DNA of 64,000 nucleotides, from assembly GCF_007741535.1 (NCBI RefSeq), contig NZ_CP036525.1, positions 2,976,001-3,040,000 on the forward strand. The letters are read 5' to 3'. The notes below the pieces were generated by a model, which worked only from the letters and a program-made list of their open reading frames with translations, did not search any database and was not told the DNA's origin. This DNA comes from Rubripirellula lacrimiformis (lineage in GTDB: Bacteria; Planctomycetota; Planctomycetia; Pirellulales; Pirellulaceae). Shown here piece by piece: positions 140 to 10,702 of the stretch. The position numbers and the translations under genes are program-made. Within the stretch, counting starts at the first letter, position 1. Each line of letters begins with the position of its first letter.

Positions 140-1180
140 ATGACCAGCACACCGCCACCCTATGATTCCTTTCTGCTCGTTTCCTTTGGCGGTCCCGAGG
201 GCCCCGAGGACGTGATGCCGTTTTTGGAAAACGTGCTGCGCGGCAAAAATGTGCCGCGGCAGCGGATGCTGGAAGTGGCCGAGCACTATGGTCATTTCGG
301 CGGTGTCAGTCCCATCAACCAGCACAATCGCGAATTGATGGCGGCGATCGAGTCCGAGTTCAAGTCGTCGGGAATCGATTTGCCGGTGTACTGGGGGAAT
401 CGGAACTGGGACCCGCTGTTCCCCGACACGCTTCGCCAGATGCGCGACGATGGCTGCAAGCGGGCACTGGCGTTTTTTACCAGCATGTTCAGTTCCTATA
501 GCGGGTGCCGCCAGTACCGCGAAAACATCATCGCGGCACAAGAAGAAGTTGGCGAAGGTGCGCCGATGGTCGAAAAGCTTCGGATGGGTTTCAACCACCC
601 TCGATTTATCGAAACGATGGCCCAATCAGTGCGTCAATCGCTCGATTCGATCAACGTCGAGGCTGCTGACGCGACCGTGTTGTTCACCGCCCACAGCATC
701 CCGATCGGCATGGCTGACCACTGTGATTATCTGTTGCAGTTGCAAGAGTCCAGTCGCTTGGTCGCGGAATCCCTGGGCGTGAAGAGCTGGAAGTTGGTGT
801 TCCAAAGCCGCAGCGGTCCCCCACAGCAGCCGTGGTTGGAACCTGACGTTTTGGATTCGATCGCTGAAATGGACGATGCGTCCAAGCTGTCATCGCTGGT
901 GATCGTCCCGATCGGGTTCGTGAGCGATCACATGGAAGTGATGTTTGACTTGGACGAAGAAGCGGCTCAGTTGTGCCAGGAACGCGGGATCAAGATGGCT
1001 CGCGCCGCCACCGCCGGAACCTCGCCATCGTTCGTGGGGATGATCCGCGAATTGGTCGAAGAGCGACTGGGGCGTGTGGAAGGAAGGCCAGCACTGGGGG
1101 ACTTGGGGCCTTGGCACGACGTGTGTCCGGCCGACTGCTGCACCTATACCCCGGCGCGAAGACCCGCGCCTGCGACCTGA
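140..1180 (+). CDS. hemH: Ferrochelatase (HemH/CpfC family)
   Basis: Predicted to insert Fe2+ into a porphyrin, protoporphyrin IX or coproporphyrin III, in the last steps of haem synthesis. The protein has 346 residues, normal for the family. It opens with LLVSFGGPEGPEDVMPFL, typical of ferrochelatases. The catalytic His lies in FTAHSIP (H185) and the second metal-side acidic motif in HMEVMFDLD (E266). The C-terminus carries CPADCC (C329, C333, C334). That Cys cluster resembles ferrochelatases that bind a [2Fe-2S] cluster, so a cluster is plausible but inferred. No strong Shine-Dalgarno precedes the ATG. The gene runs convergently toward the isomerase-like gene. Which porphyrin is used cannot be decided from this sequence alone. 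Confidence 0.95.
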   Translation: MTSTPPPYDSFLLVSFGGPEGPEDVMPFLENVLRGKNVPRQRMLEVAEHYGHFGGVSPINQHNRELMAAIESEFKSSGIDLPVYWGNRNWDPLFPDTLRQMRDDGCKRALAFFTSMFSSYSGCRQYRENIIAAQEEVGEGAPMVEKLRMGFNHPRFIETMAQSVRQSLDSINVEAADATVLFTAHSIPIGMADHCDYLLQLQESSRLVAESLGVKSWKLVFQSRSGPPQQPWLEPDVLDSIAEMDDASKLSSLVIVPIGFVSDHMEVMFDLDEEAAQLCQERGIKMARAATAGTSPSFVGMIRELVEERLGRVEGRPALGDLGPWHDVCPADCCTYTPARRPAPAT

Positions 1181-2290: not shown

Positions 2291-3049
2291 ATGAGCAAAG
2301 CAAATTTTCGAGACGCATTTCGTTCCGGACGATCTCTGGTCGGTTTTCAATTGACCAGTTTCAGCCCACATTGGCCCCGACAATTGGCGGGGGCGATCGA
2401 TTTCGCCTTCATCGATTGCGAACATCATTGTTTTAGCCGCGAACAAGTCGCCTGGATGTGCGTCGGATACCGGGCGGTCGGGATCGCGCCGATCGTGCGG
2501 GTTCTGAAACCCTGCGCGGCGCTAGTGCGAGCGGCGATGGACGATGGTGCCGAAGGCGTTGTCGTGCCGTATGTCGAAACGGTCCAACAGGTCCAGGAAG
2601 TCGCCGCGGCCGCAAAGCTGCGTCCGATCCAAGGGCAACGGGCCGCAGCGGCGATGCAGGGCCAACCGCTCGACGAAGCGATGATGGTGGCCAGCCGAAA
2701 CCACTGTGGGGACGTCAGCTTGATTCTTCAGATCGAAAGCGAGATCGCCGTGAAACGCTGCGACGAACTGGTTTCGGTTGCCGGAGTCGATGGAGTCCTG
2801 GTGGGCCCCTACGATTTGACCGCGACCTTGGGATGTTTGGGCCAGCACGATGATTCGAGGTTCCAAGCTGCGGCCCAGCGCGTCGCCGACATTGTCCGTG
2901 CGAAGGGATTGGGCGCAGGGATCTATTTCGCCGAAAGCCCCGCCAAGGAACAGATGGCGGCCCAGTGGGGTTACAACCTGATGATTTCGGGATGCGACGT
3001 GACGCTGATCCGCGAATCCTTCGCTGTGCGAAAGTTGCCCACCCGATGA
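2291..3049 (+). CDS. HpcH/HpaI-family aldolase
   Basis: A 252-residue class II pyruvate-type aldolase of the HpcH/HpaI/citrate-lyase-beta family, which makes or breaks C-C bonds between pyruvate (or acetyl-CoA) and aldehydes using a divalent metal. Family marks are FIDCEHH (residues 40-46), the arginine in PIVRVL (R70), the metal-site glutamate in LQIES (E149) and VGPYDLT with D175. The length is normal. It is the first gene of a tight five-gene run. Its TGA overlaps the ATG of the terpene cyclase gene (ATGA, 3046-3049), which implies translational coupling. The substrate is unknown. The coupling suggests a role in the same pathway, not free sugar catabolism. Confidence 0.88.
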   Translation: MSKANFRDAFRSGRSLVGFQLTSFSPHWPRQLAGAIDFAFIDCEHHCFSREQVAWMCVGYRAVGIAPIVRVLKPCAALVRAAMDDGAEGVVVPYVETVQQVQEVAAAAKLRPIQGQRAAAAMQGQPLDEAMMVASRNHCGDVSLILQIESEIAVKRCDELVSVAGVDGVLVGPYDLTATLGCLGQHDDSRFQAAAQRVADIVRAKGLGAGIYFAESPAKEQMAAQWGYNLMISGCDVTLIRESFAVRKLPTR

Positions 3050-4908
3050 ACGAAGAATTACGTACGAGAACTCGGGCTGCGCTGGATCAATTGCGAAGCG
3101 AGTTGCTGGACCAGCGGACCGCTGATGGGCACTGGGTTGGTCAGTTGTCGTCGTCCGCACTCAGTACCGCAACGGCCGTCAGCGCGATCGCTGCGTTGGT
3201 GGTTCATGGTGATGTCGCGGTGCCGGATTCCGATCGCGAAATGATTTCGCGCGGCGTCAATTATTTGCGGGCGTGCCAAAACGATGATGGTGGCTTTGGC
3301 GACACCGATCGCAGCCTATCCAACATTGCGACCAGCTACCTGGTCTTGGCGGCTTCGGCATTGGCGGACCAGGCCGTCGGGCAACGTTTGGGCGACGATT
3401 CGCTGGCGTCGCTCGATGCGTACATTCAGCGCAGCGGCGGCATCGCAGGGCTTCGTCAGCGGTACGGAACCGACAAGACGTTTGTGGTTCCGATCATGAC
3501 CAACATGGCGATCGCAGGATTGATTGATTGGGACCAAGTGGCGGCGTTGCCTTTCGAAGCCGCCGTGTTTCCCCAATCGATGTATCGGTTGCTGCGGATG
3601 CCGGTGGTCAGCTACGCCATCCCGGCGCTGGTGGCGATCGGTCAAGCCAGGCACTTTCATGGCAAACGCACGTTTGCCCCCTGGCGCTGGGTGCGATCCC
3701 GGGCGATCGGTCGAACCATGGATGTGCTGCGCCGGATGCAGCCGCAAAGTGGCGGATACCTCGAAGCCACCCCGCTGACATCGTTCGTGGTGATGAGTCT
3801 GGCGGTGACCCAGCGAGGTGATCACGCGGTCTGTCGCGACGGTCTGCGTTTTCTGCGTGAATCGATGTTGGACGATGGCAGTTGGCCGATCGACACCAAC
3901 TTGGCGACTTGGGTGACATCGCTGACGATCGATGCGTTGGCGTCCGATCCGGATGATGACGGTGCATGGTGCAGTCGTGAATTGGTGCAGTGGCATCTGT
4001 CGTGCCAGCACTTGGTCCGGCATCCGTTCACCGGCGCCGAACCCGGTGGTTGGGGTTGGACGGATCTAAGTGGTGCGGTGCCCGACAGCGACGATACGCC
4101 GGGCGCCATCTTGGCGCTTGAACGAATGCGAGGCTGGATCGAATCCGGTACCGGTCCCGAGCCCCCATCGGCGGCTGGTCAACAAGATCTGGTTCGTGAA
4201 ATCGACCGTGCGATCGTTCGTGGCCAGCGCTGGTTGATCAAACTGCAGAACCGAAATGGCGGCTGGCCGACGTTTTGTCGGGGCTGGGGTAAGTTGCCGT
4301 TTGACCGCAGCAGCACCGATTTGACAGCCCATGCGATGCGTGCTTTGACGGTCTCGTGCGGGTCCAGCCAGGACATTGCGGGCGCGGCCGACGGCGCGAT
4401 CCGCCGTGGTCGAGCGTTTTTGCAGCGTAGCCAGCGGCCCGACGGGGCTTGGTTGCCGCTTTGGTTTGGGAATCAGGATCGGCCTGACGAAGACAATCCG
4501 GTTTATGGAACGTCCAAGGTTTTGGCGGCCTCCCGCCGGGTTTCCCTATCTGATGGGGGAGTCGACATGGCGTTACAGTACTTGATTGACAGCCAAAACG
4601 ACGACGGCGGTTGGGGGGGAGGCCCCTCAATCACCCGCTATTGGGCGGGAAGTGGCGATCATTTGGTCAGCAGTGTCGAAGAAACCGCCTTAGCCGTTGA
4701 CGCAATCGTGTCCGCCGGCGGTGGGAATGATCGGGCGGATCAGGCTATAATCGCCGGAGTTCGCTTTTTGTTAGACAGCATTGAATCCGGTCGCCACCGT
4801 GTGCCATGGCCGATTGGATTCTATTTTGCGAAGCTGTGGTATCACGAACGACTGTATCCTCTGATTTTTACCGCAGCGGCATTGGGGAAGGCGTTGCAGT
4901 CGAAGTGA
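3046..4908 (+). CDS. Class II terpene cyclase, squalene-hopene cyclase-like
   Basis: A 620-residue protein built of prenyltransferase/squalene-cyclase alpha-alpha repeats. Class II cyclases protonate a polyprene with the central Asp of DxDD. Here the motif is D347-S-D349-D350 in a context (GGWGWTDL...VPDSDDT) closely resembling squalene-hopene cyclases. At least six QW-like repeats are visible, for example YLRACQNDDGGFG, WLIKLQNRNGGW, FLQRSQRPDGAW and YLIDSQNDDGGWG. The end (PIGFYFAKLWYHERLYPL) also resembles hopene or sporulenol cyclases. The length is slightly short for a hopene cyclase. The ATG at 3046 is preferred because it overlaps the aldolase stop. The next gene encodes a prenyl diphosphate synthase fusion, so the substrate may be made next door. 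The product cannot be predicted from sequence. Confidence 0.88.
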   Translation: MNEELRTRTRAALDQLRSELLDQRTADGHWVGQLSSSALSTATAVSAIAALVVHGDVAVPDSDREMISRGVNYLRACQNDDGGFGDTDRSLSNIATSYLVLAASALADQAVGQRLGDDSLASLDAYIQRSGGIAGLRQRYGTDKTFVVPIMTNMAIAGLIDWDQVAALPFEAAVFPQSMYRLLRMPVVSYAIPALVAIGQARHFHGKRTFAPWRWVRSRAIGRTMDVLRRMQPQSGGYLEATPLTSFVVMSLAVTQRGDHAVCRDGLRFLRESMLDDGSWPIDTNLATWVTSLTIDALASDPDDDGAWCSRELVQWHLSCQHLVRHPFTGAEPGGWGWTDLSGAVPDSDDTPGAILALERMRGWIESGTGPEPPSAAGQQDLVREIDRAIVRGQRWLIKLQNRNGGWPTFCRGWGKLPFDRSSTDLTAHAMRALTVSCGSSQDIAGAADGAIRRGRAFLQRSQRPDGAWLPLWFGNQDRPDEDNPVYGTSKVLAASRRVSLSDGGVDMALQYLIDSQNDDGGWGGGPSITRYWAGSGDHLVSSVEETALAVDAIVSAGGGNDRADQAIIAGVRFLLDSIESGRHRVPWPIGFYFAKLWYHERLYPLIFTAAALGKALQSK

Positions 4909-4956
4909 TCATCCCACCATTATCCCGCCCTCCAGTGACCCACTGAGGTAGACGAT

Positions 4957-6831
4957 TTGTCGACCGATACTAGCTCTGCTGATGCCACCGACTACGTCGC
5001 CACGACGCCTGGCGAGTCCACGCGGTCGACGCGACGTAAGACCAGCCACCTGAAGGATGTGCCTGAAACGCTGGAATTGCGTGAAAGCCTGCGTGCGCGC
5101 TGCGAAGACGTCGCCAGCCGGCTGGACCGTTCGGTCCCGATGACCAAGGACGAAATGGAACAGGTCGCCAGACGGATGATCCAGGAAGCCGATCTACCCG
5201 AAGGGTACCTGGGTTGGCTGATGGTGATGCTAAGCAGCGCGTTTTGGAAGGATGCGCTGGCGTCGGTCCCACCCCAGCGGCGGCTGTTCCTATTGCCGCA
5301 CTGCCTGAAACATGCCGAGGGCTGTCCGGCCGAATACGACCAATTCGGGATGAACTGCAAAGAATGTGGCGCCTGCAGCATTGCCGATTTCCGAGGCTTG
5401 GCCGAAGAAATGGGGTACCGCGTGCTGGTGGCCGAGGGATCGCCGGTCGTGATGAAGATCATCGTCGGCGGCTATGTCGACGCCGTCGTCGGCGTGGCCT
5501 GTTTGAATGTGTTGGAAAAGGCGATCGACAAGGTTCTGTTGGCCGGTATCCCCTGCATGGCCGTGCCGCTGCTAAGCAGTGATTGCCGCAACACGAAGGT
5601 CGACGAAGCCTGGGTCGACCAGATGATTCGCACGCCTTACCAGCCGGCCGCCCAGGCGACTCGCAGCTACGTGCATCTGATGCGTGCGGCGGGTGACCTG
5701 TTTTCCACCGAATCGTTGGATAAGGTCGCGCCCCGAATTCGCAGCCAAGCCGCATTGGGCGAAGACGCGGTGACGATGGAAACCATCCAGTCGATGGATG
5801 CGATCGCGGCGACCGAGCACATCGCATACGACTTTTTGTCGCGTGGTGGAAAGCACTCGCGGCCGTTCATCACATTGGCCGCGTACGATGCGATGACGGG
5901 CGGTCAATGCACCGGCCCCGATGCTGCCCAGGCGGTTGCCGATATCCCGATGTCGGTTCGACGAGCGGCGATGAGCATTGAAACGTTTCACAAGGCCAGC
6001 CTGGTTCACGACGACATCGAAGACGATGACGCGTACCGCTATGGTCAGTTGGCGGTGCACCGCCGCTTTGGTTTGCCGACGGCCATCAATGTCGGCGACT
6101 ATTTGATCGGTCTGGGGTATCGGTTGCTAAGCCGCGGCGACAGTGGCGACACGGTCGATGCGGAAGCCCGTGCCGACGTGGTCGATGCCTTGGCGGCAGC
6201 CCATTTGCGACTGTCCGAAGGTCAAGGCGCCGAACTGCTGTGGCGTGATGCCAAGGATCGTCGATTGACGCCACTGGATGCGCTAAAGGTTTACGCGTTG
6301 AAGACTTCGCCGGCCTTCGAAGCGGCGCTGATCAGCGGCATTCGTTTGGCGACCGACGTCCAGCCGTATCGGGAAGCGATTCGGACGTTCAGCCGAAACA
6401 TGGGAGTCGCGTTCCAAATCTTGAACGACCTGGGCGATTGGGTCGGTGACGACAGCAACAAAATGTCGGCCGGCGGAGACGTTTTTGGCGGTCGTCCGAC
6501 CTTGCTGTGGGCCTTGGCTCTGGCCGCGTTGGACGAATCCGGACAGGCCGAATTGCTTTCGTTGGCCCAGCCGGATTGTCCGCTATCGGACGACGAAAGA
6601 TTCTCTGGCGTGCGTCGACTTTACGACAAGGCCAACGTGTTCGAGACGGCGTTTGCGCTGGTCGACAAACACCAGGCTCGTGCCGAACAAGTGGCCGATG
6701 AATTGGACGTCGATGAACTTCGTCGTCTGTTTTACTTTTTGGTCGACACCGTTCTGGAACGTCCTGAAATGCCTTCGCCCGCCGTGGTATCGTTGGGCGT
6801 CTCTGCACCGCTTTCCACGCCCGCACCGTGA
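4957..6831 (+). CDS. DUF116-polyprenyl diphosphate synthase fusion protein
   Basis: A 624-residue two-domain protein. Residues about 105-230 form a DUF116-like domain with a metal-site look: LLPHCL (C116), C123, then CKECGAC (C134, C137, C140), C182, C200 and DC at 210. Residues about 280-560 are a trans-isoprenyl diphosphate synthase: GGKHSRP (297-303, IPP site), first Asp-rich motif DDIED (352-356), GDYLIG (380-385), KT (449-450), and a second motif NDLGD (490-494) in which Asn replaces the usual first Asp. The first 60 residues are Thr/Ser/Arg-rich and probably disordered. The start is TTG at 4957, chosen because GAGGTAG lies 6-12 bases before it and the next in-frame Met is at residue 62. 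The domain pairing suggests a metal- or redox-controlled prenyl synthase. Chain length cannot be read from sequence alone. Confidence 0.88.
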   Translation: MSTDTSSADATDYVATTPGESTRSTRRKTSHLKDVPETLELRESLRARCEDVASRLDRSVPMTKDEMEQVARRMIQEADLPEGYLGWLMVMLSSAFWKDALASVPPQRRLFLLPHCLKHAEGCPAEYDQFGMNCKECGACSIADFRGLAEEMGYRVLVAEGSPVVMKIIVGGYVDAVVGVACLNVLEKAIDKVLLAGIPCMAVPLLSSDCRNTKVDEAWVDQMIRTPYQPAAQATRSYVHLMRAAGDLFSTESLDKVAPRIRSQAALGEDAVTMETIQSMDAIAATEHIAYDFLSRGGKHSRPFITLAAYDAMTGGQCTGPDAAQAVADIPMSVRRAAMSIETFHKASLVHDDIEDDDAYRYGQLAVHRRFGLPTAINVGDYLIGLGYRLLSRGDSGDTVDAEARADVVDALAAAHLRLSEGQGAELLWRDAKDRRLTPLDALKVYALKTSPAFEAALISGIRLATDVQPYREAIRTFSRNMGVAFQILNDLGDWVGDDSNKMSAGGDVFGGRPTLLWALALAALDESGQAELLSLAQPDCPLSDDERFSGVRRLYDKANVFETAFALVDKHQARAEQVADELDVDELRRLFYFLVDTVLERPEMPSPAVVSLGVSAPLSTPAP

Positions 6832-6883
6832 AAACGGTCGGCGTTTGATTGCGGCCTAGGCAGCCCGTGGGTTGGCCCGATGG

Positions 6884-7540
6884 ATGGTTGGACAGTTTGA
6901 TTTTAGTAGCGGCACTTCCGAAAGTGATGTGATGGGCCAGATGACTTCGTCAGGCGATTCTCGAGTCGAGATTCGTGAATTGATCGATCAGTTTTATCAT
7001 TCCCCCGCCGAACATTCGGACTTGGGTGAATTCGAAAAACAGACGACGGTCCCGGCACCTTTCGACACGCTGTTGGATCACAACGCCCACATGACGGTGA
7101 CGGTCGAATCGCATCATGGGCAAAGCGTCGGGGTCGAGGTCCATCGTTGCCGTCAGCACGAAAATTGGTACAGCCGCGAAATCACGTTGGTCACATCCGA
7201 ATCCAAAAAGGTGGTCCAGTACGGGATCGTCCGCTTAGACACGATGGCCCTGGCCGACGAGGTTTGGCGGCGGATCGAAAGCCAACAGACTCCGCTGGGG
7301 CGTGTGCTGATCGAACACAACGTGCTGCGAGAAGTCCAGTTGTTGGGGCTGTGGAAAGTGCACGCTGGGCCCAGCTTGGCGGCCCTGATGAAGTGCAGCG
7401 TTGGCGATGTGACCTACGGCCGAACGGCACTGATCTATTGCGATTCGAAACCAGCGATCGAGTTGTTGGAAATCGTGGCCCCCGAGTCATCGCTGGGGGC
7501 GCCACCGCCGGGGGCGTCACCGTTGGGGGCGACATCGTGA
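6884..7540 (+). CDS. UbiC-like chorismate lyase family protein
   Basis: A protein of 218 residues. Chorismate lyase releases 4-hydroxybenzoate and pyruvate from chorismate. Family-like segments are LLDHNAHMTVTVE, WYSREITLV, YGIVRLD, TPLGRVLIE (136-144) and YGRTALIYCDSKPAIELLE. The last corresponds to the UbiC stretch ending in the active-site Glu (here about E196). The tail is a short Gly/Ala/Pro low-complexity extension. The start is uncertain: TTG 6872, ATG 6884, ATG 6932 and ATG 6941 are all in frame, and the conserved part begins after all of them. The stop overlaps the next ATG (TGATG, 7538-7542). Membership in the prenyl-synthesis run suggests it supplies an aromatic acceptor. A related chorismatase or UTRA-type ligand-binding role is possible. 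Confidence 0.75.
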   Translation: MVGQFDFSSGTSESDVMGQMTSSGDSRVEIRELIDQFYHSPAEHSDLGEFEKQTTVPAPFDTLLDHNAHMTVTVESHHGQSVGVEVHRCRQHENWYSREITLVTSESKKVVQYGIVRLDTMALADEVWRRIESQQTPLGRVLIEHNVLREVQLLGLWKVHAGPSLAALMKCSVGDVTYGRTALIYCDSKPAIELLEIVAPESSLGAPPPGASPLGATS

Positions 7541-8367
7541 TGTTTGTTTTCGGATCCATGCCGGTGTTTCGACGTGCGATGGTCGGCTGCGTTTGGCTTG
7601 CGTTGGTCGCGGCGGTACAAATTGCTGCGATCGGCCAACAACCGAAGGAAGCTGATTCGGACTTGTCGGTTCCGGCGGCAACCCTGTCATCGCTGCGGAT
7701 TCAAGCCAGCGAATCGCTGCGTGCGGGAAAGCTTTCGCTAGCCACCGCGGCAGCCGACGCGATGATCACGGACTATGGCGACGACGTTCAAGCGATCGCG
7801 GCCGCGGGGGATATCTATCTGCGGTCTGGGAAAGTCCAAAAATCAGTGCGTCAATTCGATCGCTTGGTGAACCGCCAACCGTCCCAGATGCCCTACTTAT
7901 GGCAGCGTGGGATCGCACTCTATTTTGCCGGCAAGTACGACGAGGCGGCCGATCAATTCGCCAAGCACCGCCGAGTGAATCCCAATGATGTGGAGAATGC
8001 CGCTTGGCACTTTCTGTGTATCGCGAAGGACCAGTCGCCGGAAAAGGCCAAGCAGATGGTATTGCCCGCACCGGGCGATGGGCGAGAACCGATGAACGAA
8101 GTGTTGGCGATGCTGTCCAGCGGCGATACCCAGTCGGTGCGTGCCCGCATCGATCAAGTCCATCGAGATTCACCTGGGTCGCGATCGGCGAAAGAAGCGA
8201 CGTTCTATGGCGAGCTTTACCTGGGCCTGTATGCCGACGCCTGGGGTGATTTGGCGGAAGCCAAGGCCCGAATGGACGCCGCCTGCCGAGATACCCCGCC
8301 GCATTACATGGGCGACGTCGCACGCGTCTATGCCGAGCACCTGCGGCAGTCGACCGTATTGCCGTAG
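7540..8367 (+). CDS. Exported or membrane-anchored TPR protein
   Basis: A protein of 275 residues. An N-terminal hydrophobic segment (VGCVWLALVAAVQIAAIG, residues 15-32) follows two arginines and looks like a signal peptide or anchor. After it come tetratricopeptide-like helical pairs, for example AGDIYLRSGKVQKSVRQFDRLVNRQPSQMPYL and GIALYFAGKYDEAADQFAKHRRVNP. TPR arrays bind partner proteins. The ATG at 7540 overlaps the previous stop, so it is probably translated with the chorismate lyase-like gene. It is the last gene of the run and ends at a repeat cluster. It may scaffold the enzymes at the membrane, but this is inference from position only. A second Met at residue 7 is an alternative start. 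Confidence 0.8.
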   Translation: MFVFGSMPVFRRAMVGCVWLALVAAVQIAAIGQQPKEADSDLSVPAATLSSLRIQASESLRAGKLSLATAAADAMITDYGDDVQAIAAAGDIYLRSGKVQKSVRQFDRLVNRQPSQMPYLWQRGIALYFAGKYDEAADQFAKHRRVNPNDVENAAWHFLCIAKDQSPEKAKQMVLPAPGDGREPMNEVLAMLSSGDTQSVRARIDQVHRDSPGSRSAKEATFYGELYLGLYADAWGDLAEAKARMDAACRDTPPHYMGDVARVYAEHLRQSTVLP

Positions 8368-8550: not shown

Positions 8551-9216
8551 TTAGAGGCCGCCGACCTGTTCGGGTTTGCAGGTCGCTTGCATGACGGTGA
8601 ACAGCGACAGCGGATTCGGCTTGGTTCGGCTGTCGAGTCGCAGCGGCAATTCGCGGACCACATCGTCAAGCTCGACGTCGGTCCGCCAACCGAGGCGTTT
8701 GGTGATGTTGCCAGCCGAATCGACGACCCTTGCGATCAGCGGGTTATCGCTGCGGAAGTGGTTGATCATCATCACACGTCCGCCTGGTTTGCAGACGCGA
8801 ACGATCTCGGACATCATTTGCTGTGGCTTGGAAACGACGCTGATGGTGTGAAACGATGTCACCAGATCAAACGAGGAATCGGGGAAGGTCAGTTTTTCGG
8901 CGTTCATCGGCATCACTTCGATGTGATTCCAATTCCGCTGGGCGATCAACTGTTCGGCTTCGGCCAACATGGCTTCAGAAAGATCTACCCCGGTCAACGA
9001 GATGTTGGTGGGATAGCTTTCGAGTGACATACCGGTACCCACGCCGACTTCTAGAACGCGAGCTCCAGCCGGGATGTTCATCGATTTGATCGCAGCCGAG
9101 ATTCGACGCTTCGCCACCGCTGGCCACAATGCTTGGTAGGCGGGCACGAGGTGGTTGTAGAACGGGCTGCTGTGGGGCTGCGGGACCTTTTTGTCCTCGA
9201 GCGAAACTGGTTGCAT
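8551..9216 (-). CDS. Class I SAM-dependent methyltransferase, PmtA/UbiE-like
   Basis: A protein of 221 residues. Motif I is VLEVGVGTGMSL (about residues 54-65), an E/DxGxGxG SAM-binding loop. The following acidic residue is in LTGVDLSEAML, motif II lies around FDLVTSFHTISVV, and a post-II region is KPGGRVMMINHF. The VGVGTGMSLE pattern resembles the phospholipid N-methyltransferase PmtA of alphaproteobacteria. A phosphatidylserine synthase gene lies just upstream on the same strand (287-bp gap), which fits lipid head-group methylation. Quinone methylation (UbiE-type) is the main alternative. ATG 9216 is used; an adjacent TTG at 9219 is also spaced acceptably from GAGG. Confidence 0.8.
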   Translation of the reverse strand: MQPVSLEDKKVPQPHSSPFYNHLVPAYQALWPAVAKRRISAAIKSMNIPAGARVLEVGVGTGMSLESYPTNISLTGVDLSEAMLAEAEQLIAQRNWNHIEVMPMNAEKLTFPDSSFDLVTSFHTISVVSKPQQMMSEIVRVCKPGGRVMMINHFRSDNPLIARVVDSAGNITKRLGWRTDVELDDVVRELPLRLDSRTKPNPLSLFTVMQATCKPEQVGGL

Positions 9217-9506
9217 CAATCAATTGCCTCATACGACATCGAAACATCGGAACACTGCAAACGCGGTGTTTCACGCTGGTGGTCTCTGGATCAGAGAATC
9301 GCACCGGCGTTCCGATCCGATTCAAAATAGCGTCTTTTTTCGACTCTTGGACATGGCTTTGTTGACCCGCCCTGGTGTTTTCGGGCAGCTATTACAAGCC
9401 TGATACATACTGATTCGGTGATCGGGACACCATCGGATCAGTGATTCAGCGAGTAAATGACGCGTCGAAGTGAACGTTTTTCGGACGCGGCAGGCTCGCA
9501 ATCCGG

Positions 9507-10490
9507 CTAAATCGGTGTCGCCGGCTTCGTTTGCCGCGATCGGTAACGGACCAAAATCGTGCGGATTGGCGATCCGAACGCGTAGTAGCAAAACACGATC
9601 GGAAGTGCCAACCAGTGCAGCACCAACGCCCCGATGACCACGAATAGGGCTTGCCCAATTTGGTTCGGAGCCCGGCGACCACGCAGCAATTGCTGGAAAA
9701 CGTGAGGATACTGAAAGCGAGACACCATCAGGTAGGCCAGGATCAGCGCCAGCCCAGGCAGCACGTAATGCGATGCTGTCATCGTCCATTCGGCGATGTG
9801 CTGGATCTGCTGTGGATAATTTCCCGGGACGGCATAGCCAGCCAGTTCGGGCATGGCGATCGCAAAGGCGGCCAGGGTGCCGGCAGCGGCCGGGCTGGGC
9901 AGGCCTTCGAATCCCTCGTGGGAATCCTCGTCGCCGGTTTCGACGTTGAATCGAGCCAGTCGAATCAGCACGCATAGTGCAAACAGGACCCCAATTGCCC
10001 AGGTTAGCTTTAGCGGCAATGCCTGGATATCGTTGTAACGCCACACCAGCACCGCGGGGGCGGTTCCAAAGGTGATCGCGTCACAGAGGCTGTCCAATTC
10101 GGCTCCGAAACGACTTTCTTGGCCCGTCATCCGGGCGGCCGAGCCATCTAGGGCGTCGAATAGCATCCCGCCGAAGATCAGCACACCGGCGACCAGCAGT
10201 TGTTTTTCGTTGCTCCAGGCAAGATTTTCGCTCATCGCGACCGCGATCGCCGCGAGTCCGCAGACCCCGTTGCCGAGTGTCAGCAGGGTGGGCAGCACGG
10301 CCAGGGTCAGTCTGCGGCGACGGCGACGTTTGCTCAGCCGTGTACCGTCGCTGGTCAGTTCGATGGGAAGTTCGCCGCTGTTTTCCTGCGAATCCATCGA
10401 TCCATCCTCGTTCTGGCCCTCGTCCAGATCGTCGTCATCGTTTTGCGGGGAATTGGGCCGCGGATGGAGCCCACGTTTCATTTCGCTCAT
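9507..10490 (-). CDS. pssA: CDP-diacylglycerol-serine O-phosphatidyltransferase
   Basis: Makes phosphatidylserine from CDP-diacylglycerol and serine at the membrane. A protein of 327 residues carrying the complete CDP-alcohol phosphatidyltransferase motif DG-x2-AR-x8-G-x3-D-x3-D at about residues 115-137 (DGSAARMTGQESRFGAELDSLCD). Several hydrophobic membrane helices surround it. The first 60 residues are an acidic, low-complexity stretch followed by a run of arginines (KRRRRRR), longer than usual and probably cytoplasmic. PssA rather than a PgsA-type enzyme is suggested by TFGTAPAVLVW and the helix order. The gene is divergent from nadB with 212 bp between starts. ATG 10490 is chosen; a TTG immediately upstream is possible. 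Confidence 0.88.
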   Translation of the reverse strand: MSEMKRGLHPRPNSPQNDDDDLDEGQNEDGSMDSQENSGELPIELTSDGTRLSKRRRRRRLTLAVLPTLLTLGNGVCGLAAIAVAMSENLAWSNEKQLLVAGVLIFGGMLFDALDGSAARMTGQESRFGAELDSLCDAITFGTAPAVLVWRYNDIQALPLKLTWAIGVLFALCVLIRLARFNVETGDEDSHEGFEGLPSPAAAGTLAAFAIAMPELAGYAVPGNYPQQIQHIAEWTMTASHYVLPGLALILAYLMVSRFQYPHVFQQLLRGRRAPNQIGQALFVVIGALVLHWLALPIVFCYYAFGSPIRTILVRYRSRQTKPATPI

Positions 10491-10622
10491 CAAGAAAATC
10501 AGTTGCTAAAAGGTGGCAATTCGCCATCGGCGGGGGGTGGGCCAGCAGCAGTTGTCTGGTGACGCAGTTGGCGGCGGGTGGATTTGGTCCATCGTAGCCG
10601 TACTCATGGTCGCCAAGCGTAT

Positions 10623-10634
10623 CCGTTATAACGG
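10623..10634. promoter_or_regulatory. Perfect 12-bp palindrome upstream of nadB
   Basis: CCGTTATAACGG is a perfect dyad 68 bp before the nadB start, in the pssA-nadB divergent region. It contains a -10-like TTATAA core, so it may be an operator overlapping a promoter. No regulator can be named from it. Confidence 0.3.
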
Positions 10635-10702
10635 AAGCCTGTCGATATGCGGAGGTTTTTACGCTCTGCCGACTTTCGCCGAACCCATAGAAAGATGACT
10701 GG

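What the first reader, a model, noticed from the sequence alone, without database searches (positions are those of the whole stretch)
2291..8367. Possible undescribed cyclised-prenyl or meroterpenoid operon
Five same-strand genes, two junctions overlapping (ATGA, TGATG), encode an HpcH/HpaI aldolase, a DSDD class II terpene cyclase, a DUF116-polyprenyl synthase fusion, a UbiC-like chorismate lyase and an exported TPR protein. Prenyl synthase, cyclase and an aromatic-acid former together would suit an aromatic head group with a cyclised prenyl chain. No UbiA prenyltransferase is in the window, so that step would be encoded elsewhere. I know of no characterised pathway with this exact set.
Basis: partly seen in the sequence, partly recalled or inferred. 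Interest (0 to 1): 0.85.

Follow-up and report, generated by a model that had tools for sequence, protein, structure and literature searches.

The report
Planctomycete cyclised-isoprenoid lipid gene set
The operon is real, and three of its five genes belong to an uncharacterised ring-forming isoprenoid pathway of planctomycete bacteria that is distinct from hopanoid synthesis and, in the genomes sampled, always comes with one particular iron-sulfur protein.

Summary
Cyclase (CYC) plus DUF116-polyprenyl synthase (PPS) is kept in 83 of 88 sampled loci; the UbiC-like gene (UBC) joins them in 56 of 77. The aldolase (1 of 99) and the TPR gene (17 of 77) are local.

CYC is not the canonical hopanoid cyclase: it forms its own clade, and 31 of 43 CYC-bearing genomes also carry a canonical squalene-hopene cyclase. 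On 75 genomes picked by me, CYC, DUF116 and one dicluster ferredoxin go together: 43 of 43 CYC+ genomes have both; of 32 CYC- genomes none has the ferredoxin and two have an eroded DUF116. UBC instead tracks a HemN-like radical-SAM gene (58 of 58 against 0 of 17).

UBC keeps UbiC's fold and catalytic Arg and Glu, so it probably makes 4-hydroxybenzoate. None of this genome's three UbiA genes looks dedicated to it.

Best reading: PPS makes a polyprenyl chain that CYC cyclises with iron-sulfur help. A 4-hydroxybenzoate head group is possible but unproven.

The parts
3046..4908 (+). CYC: two-domain class II terpene cyclase, 620 aa; core member
   Evidence: Pfam SQHop_cyclase N and C; 213 of 297 class genomes at E<=1e-20, a few of them weak matches; 65 of 294 genomes of a phylum draw at E<=1e-80
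4084..4095 (+). DSDD motif of CYC (residues 347-350), aligned with D374-D377 of squalene-hopene cyclase
   Evidence: alignment to 1gsz; D347, D349 and D350 invariant in 22 homologues
4957..6831 (+). DUF116-polyprenyl synthase fusion (PPS), TTG start; core member
   Evidence: Pfam; same strand within 3.2 kb of CYC in 83 of 88 loci
5170..5628 (+). DUF116 domain (residues 72-224) with cysteines 116, 123, 134, 137, 140, 182 and 210
   Evidence: PF01976 E 3.7e-39; the seven Cys invariant in 20 class homologues and kept in 3 of 3 tested from other classes
5818..6561 (+). Polyprenyl synthase domain (residues 288-535), motifs DDIED and NDLGD
   Evidence: PF00348 E 5.9e-39; Asn490 invariant in 20 class homologues
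6872..7540 (+). UBC: UbiC-like protein; usual but not constant member; true start probably later than the TTG used (first 29 residues of the model have pLDDT mostly under 50)
   Evidence: model and Foldseek; R102 (7175-7177) and E200 (7469-7471) align with the catalytic Arg and Glu of E. coli UbiC; within 5.5 kb of CYC in 56 of 77 loci
2291..3049 (+). HpcH/HpaI-type aldolase overlapping CYC by ATGA; local neighbour, not part of the conserved unit
   Evidence: Pfam; beside CYC in 1 of 99 loci, L082
7540..8367 (+). TPR protein; lineage-specific neighbour
   Evidence: Pfam TPR; within 5.5 kb in 17 of 77 loci

Best explanation
The window holds part of a planctomycete pathway for a cyclised polyprenoid lipid. 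PPS makes an all-trans polyprenyl diphosphate (inferred from its family). CYC protonates the terminal double bond with its DSDD acid and closes rings along the chain (inferred from conserved catalytic residues). The seven-cysteine DUF116 domain and a dicluster ferredoxin, in this genome encoded far from the window, probably act in one iron-sulfur redox step tied to that cyclisation; what is shown is only that the three genes occur together. In class Planctomycetia UBC, usually in the same operon, probably makes 4-hydroxybenzoate. Whether that becomes the head group of the cyclised chain is open. If it does, prenyl transfer would be done by MqnP, by the EboC-like UbiA protein or by the PPS itself, since no dedicated UbiA was recognised in this genome.
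For: PPS after CYC in 83 of 88 loci, UBC in 56 of 77. On 75 chosen genomes DUF116 is in 43 of 43 CYC+ and 2 of 32 CYC-; the ferredoxin in 43 of 43 and 0 of 32, although it is away from CYC in at least 17 of the 43 (positions). CYC+ and CYC- genomes occur together in families f1, f2, f5 and f17. In 20 loci from other planctomycete classes PPS is in 18 and the ferredoxin in 17. CYC branch 99 SH-aLRT, apart from SHC and OSC-like rows; canonical SHC in 31 of 43 CYC+ and 20 of 32 CYC-; two single-contig CYC+ genomes, G067 and G073, without an SQS_PSY match. SHC residues D376, H451, W312, W489, F601 and Y612 kept and F365, Y420, F605 replaced by other aromatics, all invariant in 22 homologues (residue roles recalled). 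UBC.
Against: No product, chain length or activity is known. UBC is in 34 of 297 class genomes without CYC and absent from 8 with it. UbiA number is three in 34 of 43 CYC+ and 19 of 32 CYC- genomes. This genome has no match to canonical SHC other than CYC but has two tandem SQS_PSY genes, so squalene is not excluded as CYC's substrate here. The ferredoxin is within about 10 kb of CYC in 21 of the 43, so part of the match is linkage. The 75 genomes were chosen by me, share ancestry, and no tree-aware test was run. Iron-sulfur binding by DUF116 is inferred from cysteines only.
Confidence: 0.55

Rival explanations
1. Two pathways share one operon: CYC, PPS and ferredoxin make a cyclised terpenoid without an aromatic part, while UBC feeds 4-hydroxybenzoate into another lipid made with the radical-SAM, AMP-ligase, aldehyde and alcohol dehydrogenase genes.
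For: UBC matches the HemN-like radical-SAM gene in 58 of 58 UBC+ and 0 of 17 UBC-; UBC without CYC in 34 class genomes; UBC in only 2 of 20 CYC loci from other classes; ADH, PQQ, radical SAM and UBC together away from CYC, with ALDH and AMP-ligase too in L171; a review reports a 4-hydroxybenzoate ester of a chlorinated fatty acid in Alienimonas chondri, genes unknown (PMC12078418, passages).
Against: UBC is in the CYC operon in 56 of 77 loci; PPS is beside UBC in 3 of 8 sampled loci from CYC- genomes; in L049, L043 and L055 the radical-SAM and dehydrogenase genes stand in one row with ferredoxin, CYC, PPS and UBC. The 17 UBC- genomes come from only two families, f2 and f16.
Confidence: 0.4
2. 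CYC is a divergent squalene cyclase that makes a hopanoid-like triterpene, and PPS is only a neighbour.
For: Same fold and catalytic residues; the window's genome has SQS_PSY genes and no canonical SHC.
Against: Canonical SHC co-resident in 31 of 43 CYC+ genomes; separate clade; G067 and G073 lack SQS_PSY; PPS next to CYC in 83 of 88 loci and DUF116 in 43 of 43 CYC+ genomes.
Confidence: 0.2
3. UBC is not a lyase but a ligand-binding or carrier protein of the UTRA/chorismate-lyase fold.
For: UTRA domains rank among the Foldseek matches; no curated family reaches its cut-off; E. coli Arg92 (Arg91 without the initiator Met) is Ile here.
Against: Catalytic Arg and Glu positions invariant; profile comparison E 2e-4 with UbiC (probability only 45) against 0.76 with the UTRA protein PhnF.
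Confidence: 0.15

Closest known systems
Squalene-hopene cyclase (TIGR01507; PDB 1gsz)
   Same: Both SHC domains, DxDD acid, His partner, aromatic cage
   Different: 99 bits against a 431-bit cut-off, separate clade, partnered with DUF116-PPS and a ferredoxin, co-resident with canonical SHC in 31 of 43 genomes
Bacillus tetraprenyl-beta-curcumene / sporulenol cyclase system (recalled)
   Same: SHC-type cyclase acting on a polyprenyl-derived C35 chain (recalled)
   Different: No DUF116, ferredoxin or chorismate lyase there (recalled); product here unknown
Cyanobacterial merosterolic acid pathway with MstE (recalled)
   Same: Class II cyclase together with prenyl and aromatic-acid enzymes (recalled)
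   Different: MstE is a single-domain cyclase working with a UbiA prenyltransferase (recalled); here a two-domain cyclase and no recognised dedicated UbiA
E. coli UbiC and Rv2949c/DUF98 chorismate lyases
   Same: Fold; catalytic Arg and Glu positions kept
   Different: About 15% identity in the structural alignment, below the Pfam cut-off, Arg92 of UbiC is Ile; not in a ubiquinone context
Alichondrichlorin of Alienimonas chondri (PMC12078418, passages)
   Same: Shows that a planctomycete makes a 4-hydroxybenzoate lipid
   Different: No cyclised terpene is described in the passage; genes unknown according to the review

Membership tests
Squalene-hopene cyclase | score over the curated TIGR01507 cut-off | tested here: not met
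   99.3 bits against 431.1
Squalene-hopene cyclase | catalytic DxDD, His and aromatic cage | tested here: met
   alignment to 1gsz and invariance in 22 homologues; residue roles recalled
Squalene-hopene cyclase | groups with SHC in a tree | tested here: not met
   CYC (26 rows) one side of a branch at 99, SHC (15 rows) at 98 SH-aLRT
Squalene-hopene cyclase | converts squalene to hopene | not testable with these tools
   needs an enzyme assay
Class II terpene cyclases | both SHC-type domains and DxDD | tested here: met
Trans-polyprenyl diphosphate synthase | family profile and fold | tested here: met
   PF00348 5.9e-39; Foldseek 1wy0 E 6.8e-13
Trans-polyprenyl diphosphate synthase | two DDxxD motifs | tested here: not met
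   first DDIED, second NDLxD with Asn invariant in 20 class homologues; of three from other classes two read DDLxD and one NDLKD
UbiC-type chorismate lyase | curated family score | tested here: not met
   no Pfam or NCBIfam match for the window protein; best of five homologues 17.2 bits against cut-off 22
UbiC-type chorismate lyase | fold | tested here: met
   Foldseek 1jd3 1.1e-5, 2nwi 4.1e-8, but UTRA domains also match; hhalign with UbiC 2e-4, with PhnF 0.76
UbiC-type chorismate lyase | catalytic Arg76 and Glu155 (numbering without Met, recalled) | tested here: met
   align with R102 and E200, invariant in 12 homologues
UbiC-type chorismate lyase | releases pyruvate from chorismate | not testable with these tools
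   needs an enzyme assay
Aromatic meroterpenoid pathway | dedicated aromatic UbiA prenyltransferase | tested here: inconclusive
   the genome's three UbiA genes look like CtaB, MqnP and EboC types from neighbours or models; UbiA genes of other genomes were counted but not assigned

The most novel reading that the evidence does not exclude
Planctomycetota share an unrecognised lipid pathway in which a class II cyclase works with a seven-cysteine DUF116-polyprenyl synthase and a dedicated dicluster ferredoxin, so that ring closure of a polyprenyl chain is coupled to iron-sulfur redox chemistry. In class Planctomycetia the chain carries a 4-hydroxybenzoate-derived head, giving a cyclised, quinone-like meroterpenoid membrane lipid made without a dedicated UbiA enzyme, the Asn-motif polyprenyl synthase doing the aromatic prenylation.
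Probability: 0.15. Interest if true: 0.9.

Novelty: new variant of a known kind. Interest (0 to 1): 0.7.

Why it matters
If right, many planctomycetes make a cyclic isoprenoid lipid that is neither a hopanoid nor a sterol, and automatic annotation may hide it under terpene or squalene-cyclase labels. It would give DUF116, for which the search listed no paper on its function by title, a testable role. It would bear on reports that planctomycetes are potential hopanoid producers and on cyclic terpenoids as biomarkers. It offers a clean knockout experiment, because CYC, DUF116-PPS and the ferredoxin form a small set that occurs together.

Tried and rejected
Five-gene operon as the unit: rejected, aldolase in 1 of 99 loci and TPR in 17 of 77. 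CYC as canonical SHC: rejected as a family member; squalene as a substrate is not excluded. A dedicated UbiA elsewhere in this genome: not recognised. UBC as a UTRA sensor: less likely, with one control only and UbiC compared as a single sequence. DUF116 function from literature: 24 papers hold the word, 20 were listed, none on its function by title. A PDB search with the UBC profile gave two unrelated weak hits.

Counts mended: one search dropped eight loci as duplicates; only two are, so one search replaces its numbers (77 of 82, 51 of 72, 15 of 72, 1 of 93). One search's class counts (51 of 72 for UBC, 67 of 72 for PPS, and the 54-locus lines) still rest on the smaller set. The tree held two SHC rows in a wrong frame (L225, L227); these and OSC_L242 were dropped. 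The CYC branch had 99/97 (bootstrap/SH-aLRT) (SH-aLRT).

Prior art: searches showed no title or abstract start that describes this gene set; several of them listed only the best of more papers (15 of 503). Passages only were read in PMC13241502, PMC4982196, PMC12078418 and PMC6606645. PMC4982196 reports terpene-cyclase and polyprenyl synthase genes shared by three strains in antiSMASH, possibly these genes. PNAS 2210081119 (also as PMC9907078) and PMC11848864 were not held.
Full report
Observation. Five same-strand ORFs lie at 2291-3049, 3046-4908, 4957-6831, 6872-7540 and 7540-8367, with ATGA at 3046-3049 and TGATG at 7538-7542. The window lies in a single-contig genome of 8.54 Mb.

Conservation. 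CYC is found in 213 of 297 class genomes at E 1e-20 or better (a few matches are weak, such as G122 at 6e-23, and may be other cyclases) and UBC in 239 of 297. Both are in 205, UBC only in 34, CYC only in 8, neither in 50. After two duplicates are dropped, 99 loci with CYC remain. PPS follows CYC on the same strand within 500 bases in 79 of 88 loci with 3 kb downstream and within 3.2 kb in 83 of 88. Of 77 loci with 5.5 kb downstream, UBC is there in 56 and the TPR gene in 17; the aldolase is in 1 of 99 (which corrects). So the aldolase and TPR genes are local neighbours.

CYC is not canonical SHC. Pfam sees both SHC domains, but the TIGR01507 score is 99 against a cut-off of 431 bits. Aligned to 1gsz, Asp376, His451, Trp312, Trp489, Phe601 and Tyr612 are kept, and Phe365, Tyr420 and Phe605 are Trp, Phe and Trp. 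All are invariant in 22 homologues (the roles of the residues are recalled). In a tree of 43 rows CYC (26), SHC (15) and OSC-like (2) sequences fall apart, with SH-aLRT 99 for CYC. I then picked 75 of the 297 genomes: 38 of 205 with both genes, 20 of 34 with UBC only, 5 of 8 with CYC only and 12 of 50 with neither. Canonical SHC passes the cut-off in 31 of the 43 CYC+ and 20 of the 32 CYC- genomes. Against this, the window's own genome has no SHC over the cut-off and has two tandem SQS_PSY genes, so squalene stays possible as a substrate here. Of the 75, 68 have an SQS_PSY match; two single-contig CYC+ genomes, G067 and G073, do not.

A set that occurs together. On the same 75 genomes DUF116 is in 43 of 43 CYC+ and 2 of 32 CYC-. 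A dicluster ferredoxin, first seen beside CYC in distant loci, is in 43 of 43 and 0 of 32. From the positions printed, the ferredoxin lies within about 10 kb of CYC in 21 of the 43 (in G021 on the other strand), elsewhere or on another contig in 17, and in 5 the CYC position was not printed. In the window's genome it is at C1:8236121-8237095, away from the window. CYC+ and CYC- genomes occur together in families f1, f2, f5 and f17, which suggests repeated joint loss, but I ran no tree-aware test. In the two CYC- exceptions (G018, G194) and in G260, also without CYC, the synthase motifs are kept while three of the seven DUF116 cysteines remain; in G178 the domain is missing. That ties the cysteine domain to cyclisation rather than to chain making.

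Beyond the class. A phylum draw finds CYC in 65 of 294 genomes at E 1e-80 or better, 45 of them labelled only 'same phylum'. Of those 45 I fetched 20 loci. PPS is in 18, the ferredoxin in 17, a SPASM-type radical-SAM gene in 14, UBC in 2 (L209, L221) and the HemN-like radical-SAM gene in 1. Recurrent neighbours there are a GcvH-like protein, a CobW-type GTPase, a small cysteine-bearing protein, a second prenyltransferase-toroid protein and a cysteine desulfurase.

UBC. AlphaFold2 gives mean pLDDT 82.8. Foldseek finds DUF98 AF1396 (4e-8), E. coli chorismate lyase (1e-5) and UTRA domains. Profile comparison with E. coli UbiC gives E 2e-4 but probability only 45; the UTRA control PhnF gives 0.76. 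UbiC Arg and Glu (76 and 155 without the initiator Met, recalled as catalytic) align with R102 and E200, invariant in 12 homologues. A HemN-like radical-SAM gene is in 58 of 58 UBC+ and 0 of 17 UBC- of the 75; the 17 are all from families f2 and f16, so independent contrasts are few. Away from CYC, UBC stands with Fe-alcohol dehydrogenase, a PQQ-repeat protein and that radical-SAM gene in L159, L160, L168, L169, L171 and L174; L159, L160 and L169 add a halogenase-like flavoprotein, L171 adds aldehyde dehydrogenase and an AMP-binding enzyme. In L049 one row reads AMP-binding, ALDH, ADH, PQQ, radical SAM, GcvH, ferredoxin, CYC, PPS, UBC, flavoprotein. In the window's genome the radical-SAM gene is at C1:7975764-7977065 with PQQ and GcvH genes beside it. 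Of eight sampled UBC loci in genomes without CYC, three have a PPS next to UBC (L174, L176, L247) and five show none in the stretch (L170, L171, L172, L173, L175).

Prenyl transfer. The three UbiA genes lie beside a CtaA-like and an ABC-transporter gene, beside an MqnE-like gene, or match the SCO3242 and EboC models below their cut-offs (the first two names rest on my reading of neighbours). UbiA number is three in 34 of 43 CYC+ and 19 of 32 CYC- genomes; G022, G042 and G174, all CYC+, have two. So a dedicated enzyme is not apparent, though genomes with four or five UbiA genes were not examined. The synthase carries NDLxD in place of the second DDxxD in 20 of 20 class homologues. The genome's two other synthases read DDxxD (by eye). 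Of three homologues from other classes two read DDLxD and one NDLKD. Whether this lets the enzyme use another acceptor is speculation.

Mechanism. Shown: conserved genes, motifs, folds and joint occurrence. Inferred: PPS makes a polyprenyl diphosphate, CYC closes rings on it or a derivative, DUF116 and the ferredoxin supply a redox step, UBC makes 4-hydroxybenzoate. Open: chain length, order of steps, and whether the aromatic acid joins the cyclised chain. The main rival is two pathways in one operon. [quoted passage not shown]

Known context. P. limnophila makes C30 carotenoids through squalene (PMC12078418, passages), which would give SQS_PSY genes a use unrelated to CYC. PMC6606645 (passages) calls Gemmata's relatives potentially hopanoid producers. 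PMC4982196 (passages) lists terpene-cyclase and polyprenyl synthase genes shared by three strains. The searches named under Tried and rejected showed no paper on this gene set.

Noticed in passing
L247 (G194:C8:127000-139000) 3772-5610, 5707-6273, 8744-10684: In a genome without CYC, a PPS with an eroded DUF116 and UBC stand about 2.5 kb from a canonical squalene-hopene cyclase, as if SHC took CYC's place.
   Followed up: partly
L204 1724-11756 and most of L205-L223 (other planctomycete classes): CYC clusters hold GcvH-like, CobW GTPase, a small Cys protein, ferredoxin, SPASM radical SAM, PPS, a second toroid protein and an IscS-like desulfurase, an iron-sulfur set around a cyclase.
   Followed up: partly
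L171 7076-17504, L159 5076-10870, L049 4614-19316: Rows of Fe-alcohol dehydrogenase, PQQ-repeat protein, HemN-like radical SAM and UBC, in part with AMP-ligase, aldehyde dehydrogenase, glycosyltransferase, thioesterase or a halogenase-like flavoprotein, look like a pathway of their own.
   Followed up: partly
L249 (G000:C1:1312500-1319500): Tandem SQS_PSY genes followed by an FAD-oxidoreductase-like gene, with an IspH-like gene upstream on the other strand (last two named by eye).
   Followed up: no
L240 160-2121, L241 171-2123 (G034, G014): Cyclases at 213-228 bits to the SHC model that lack DxDD and read VSDCTAE, the oxidosqualene-cyclase motif (recalled), in a genus (g57) that also carries CYC.
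   Followed up: partly
window 140-1180 + and 1304-2446 -: Ferrochelatase and a TAT-exported TIM-barrel gene lie upstream. Among 99 CYC loci the TIM-barrel gene is present in 12, always on the other strand, the ferrochelatase in none.
   Followed up: yes
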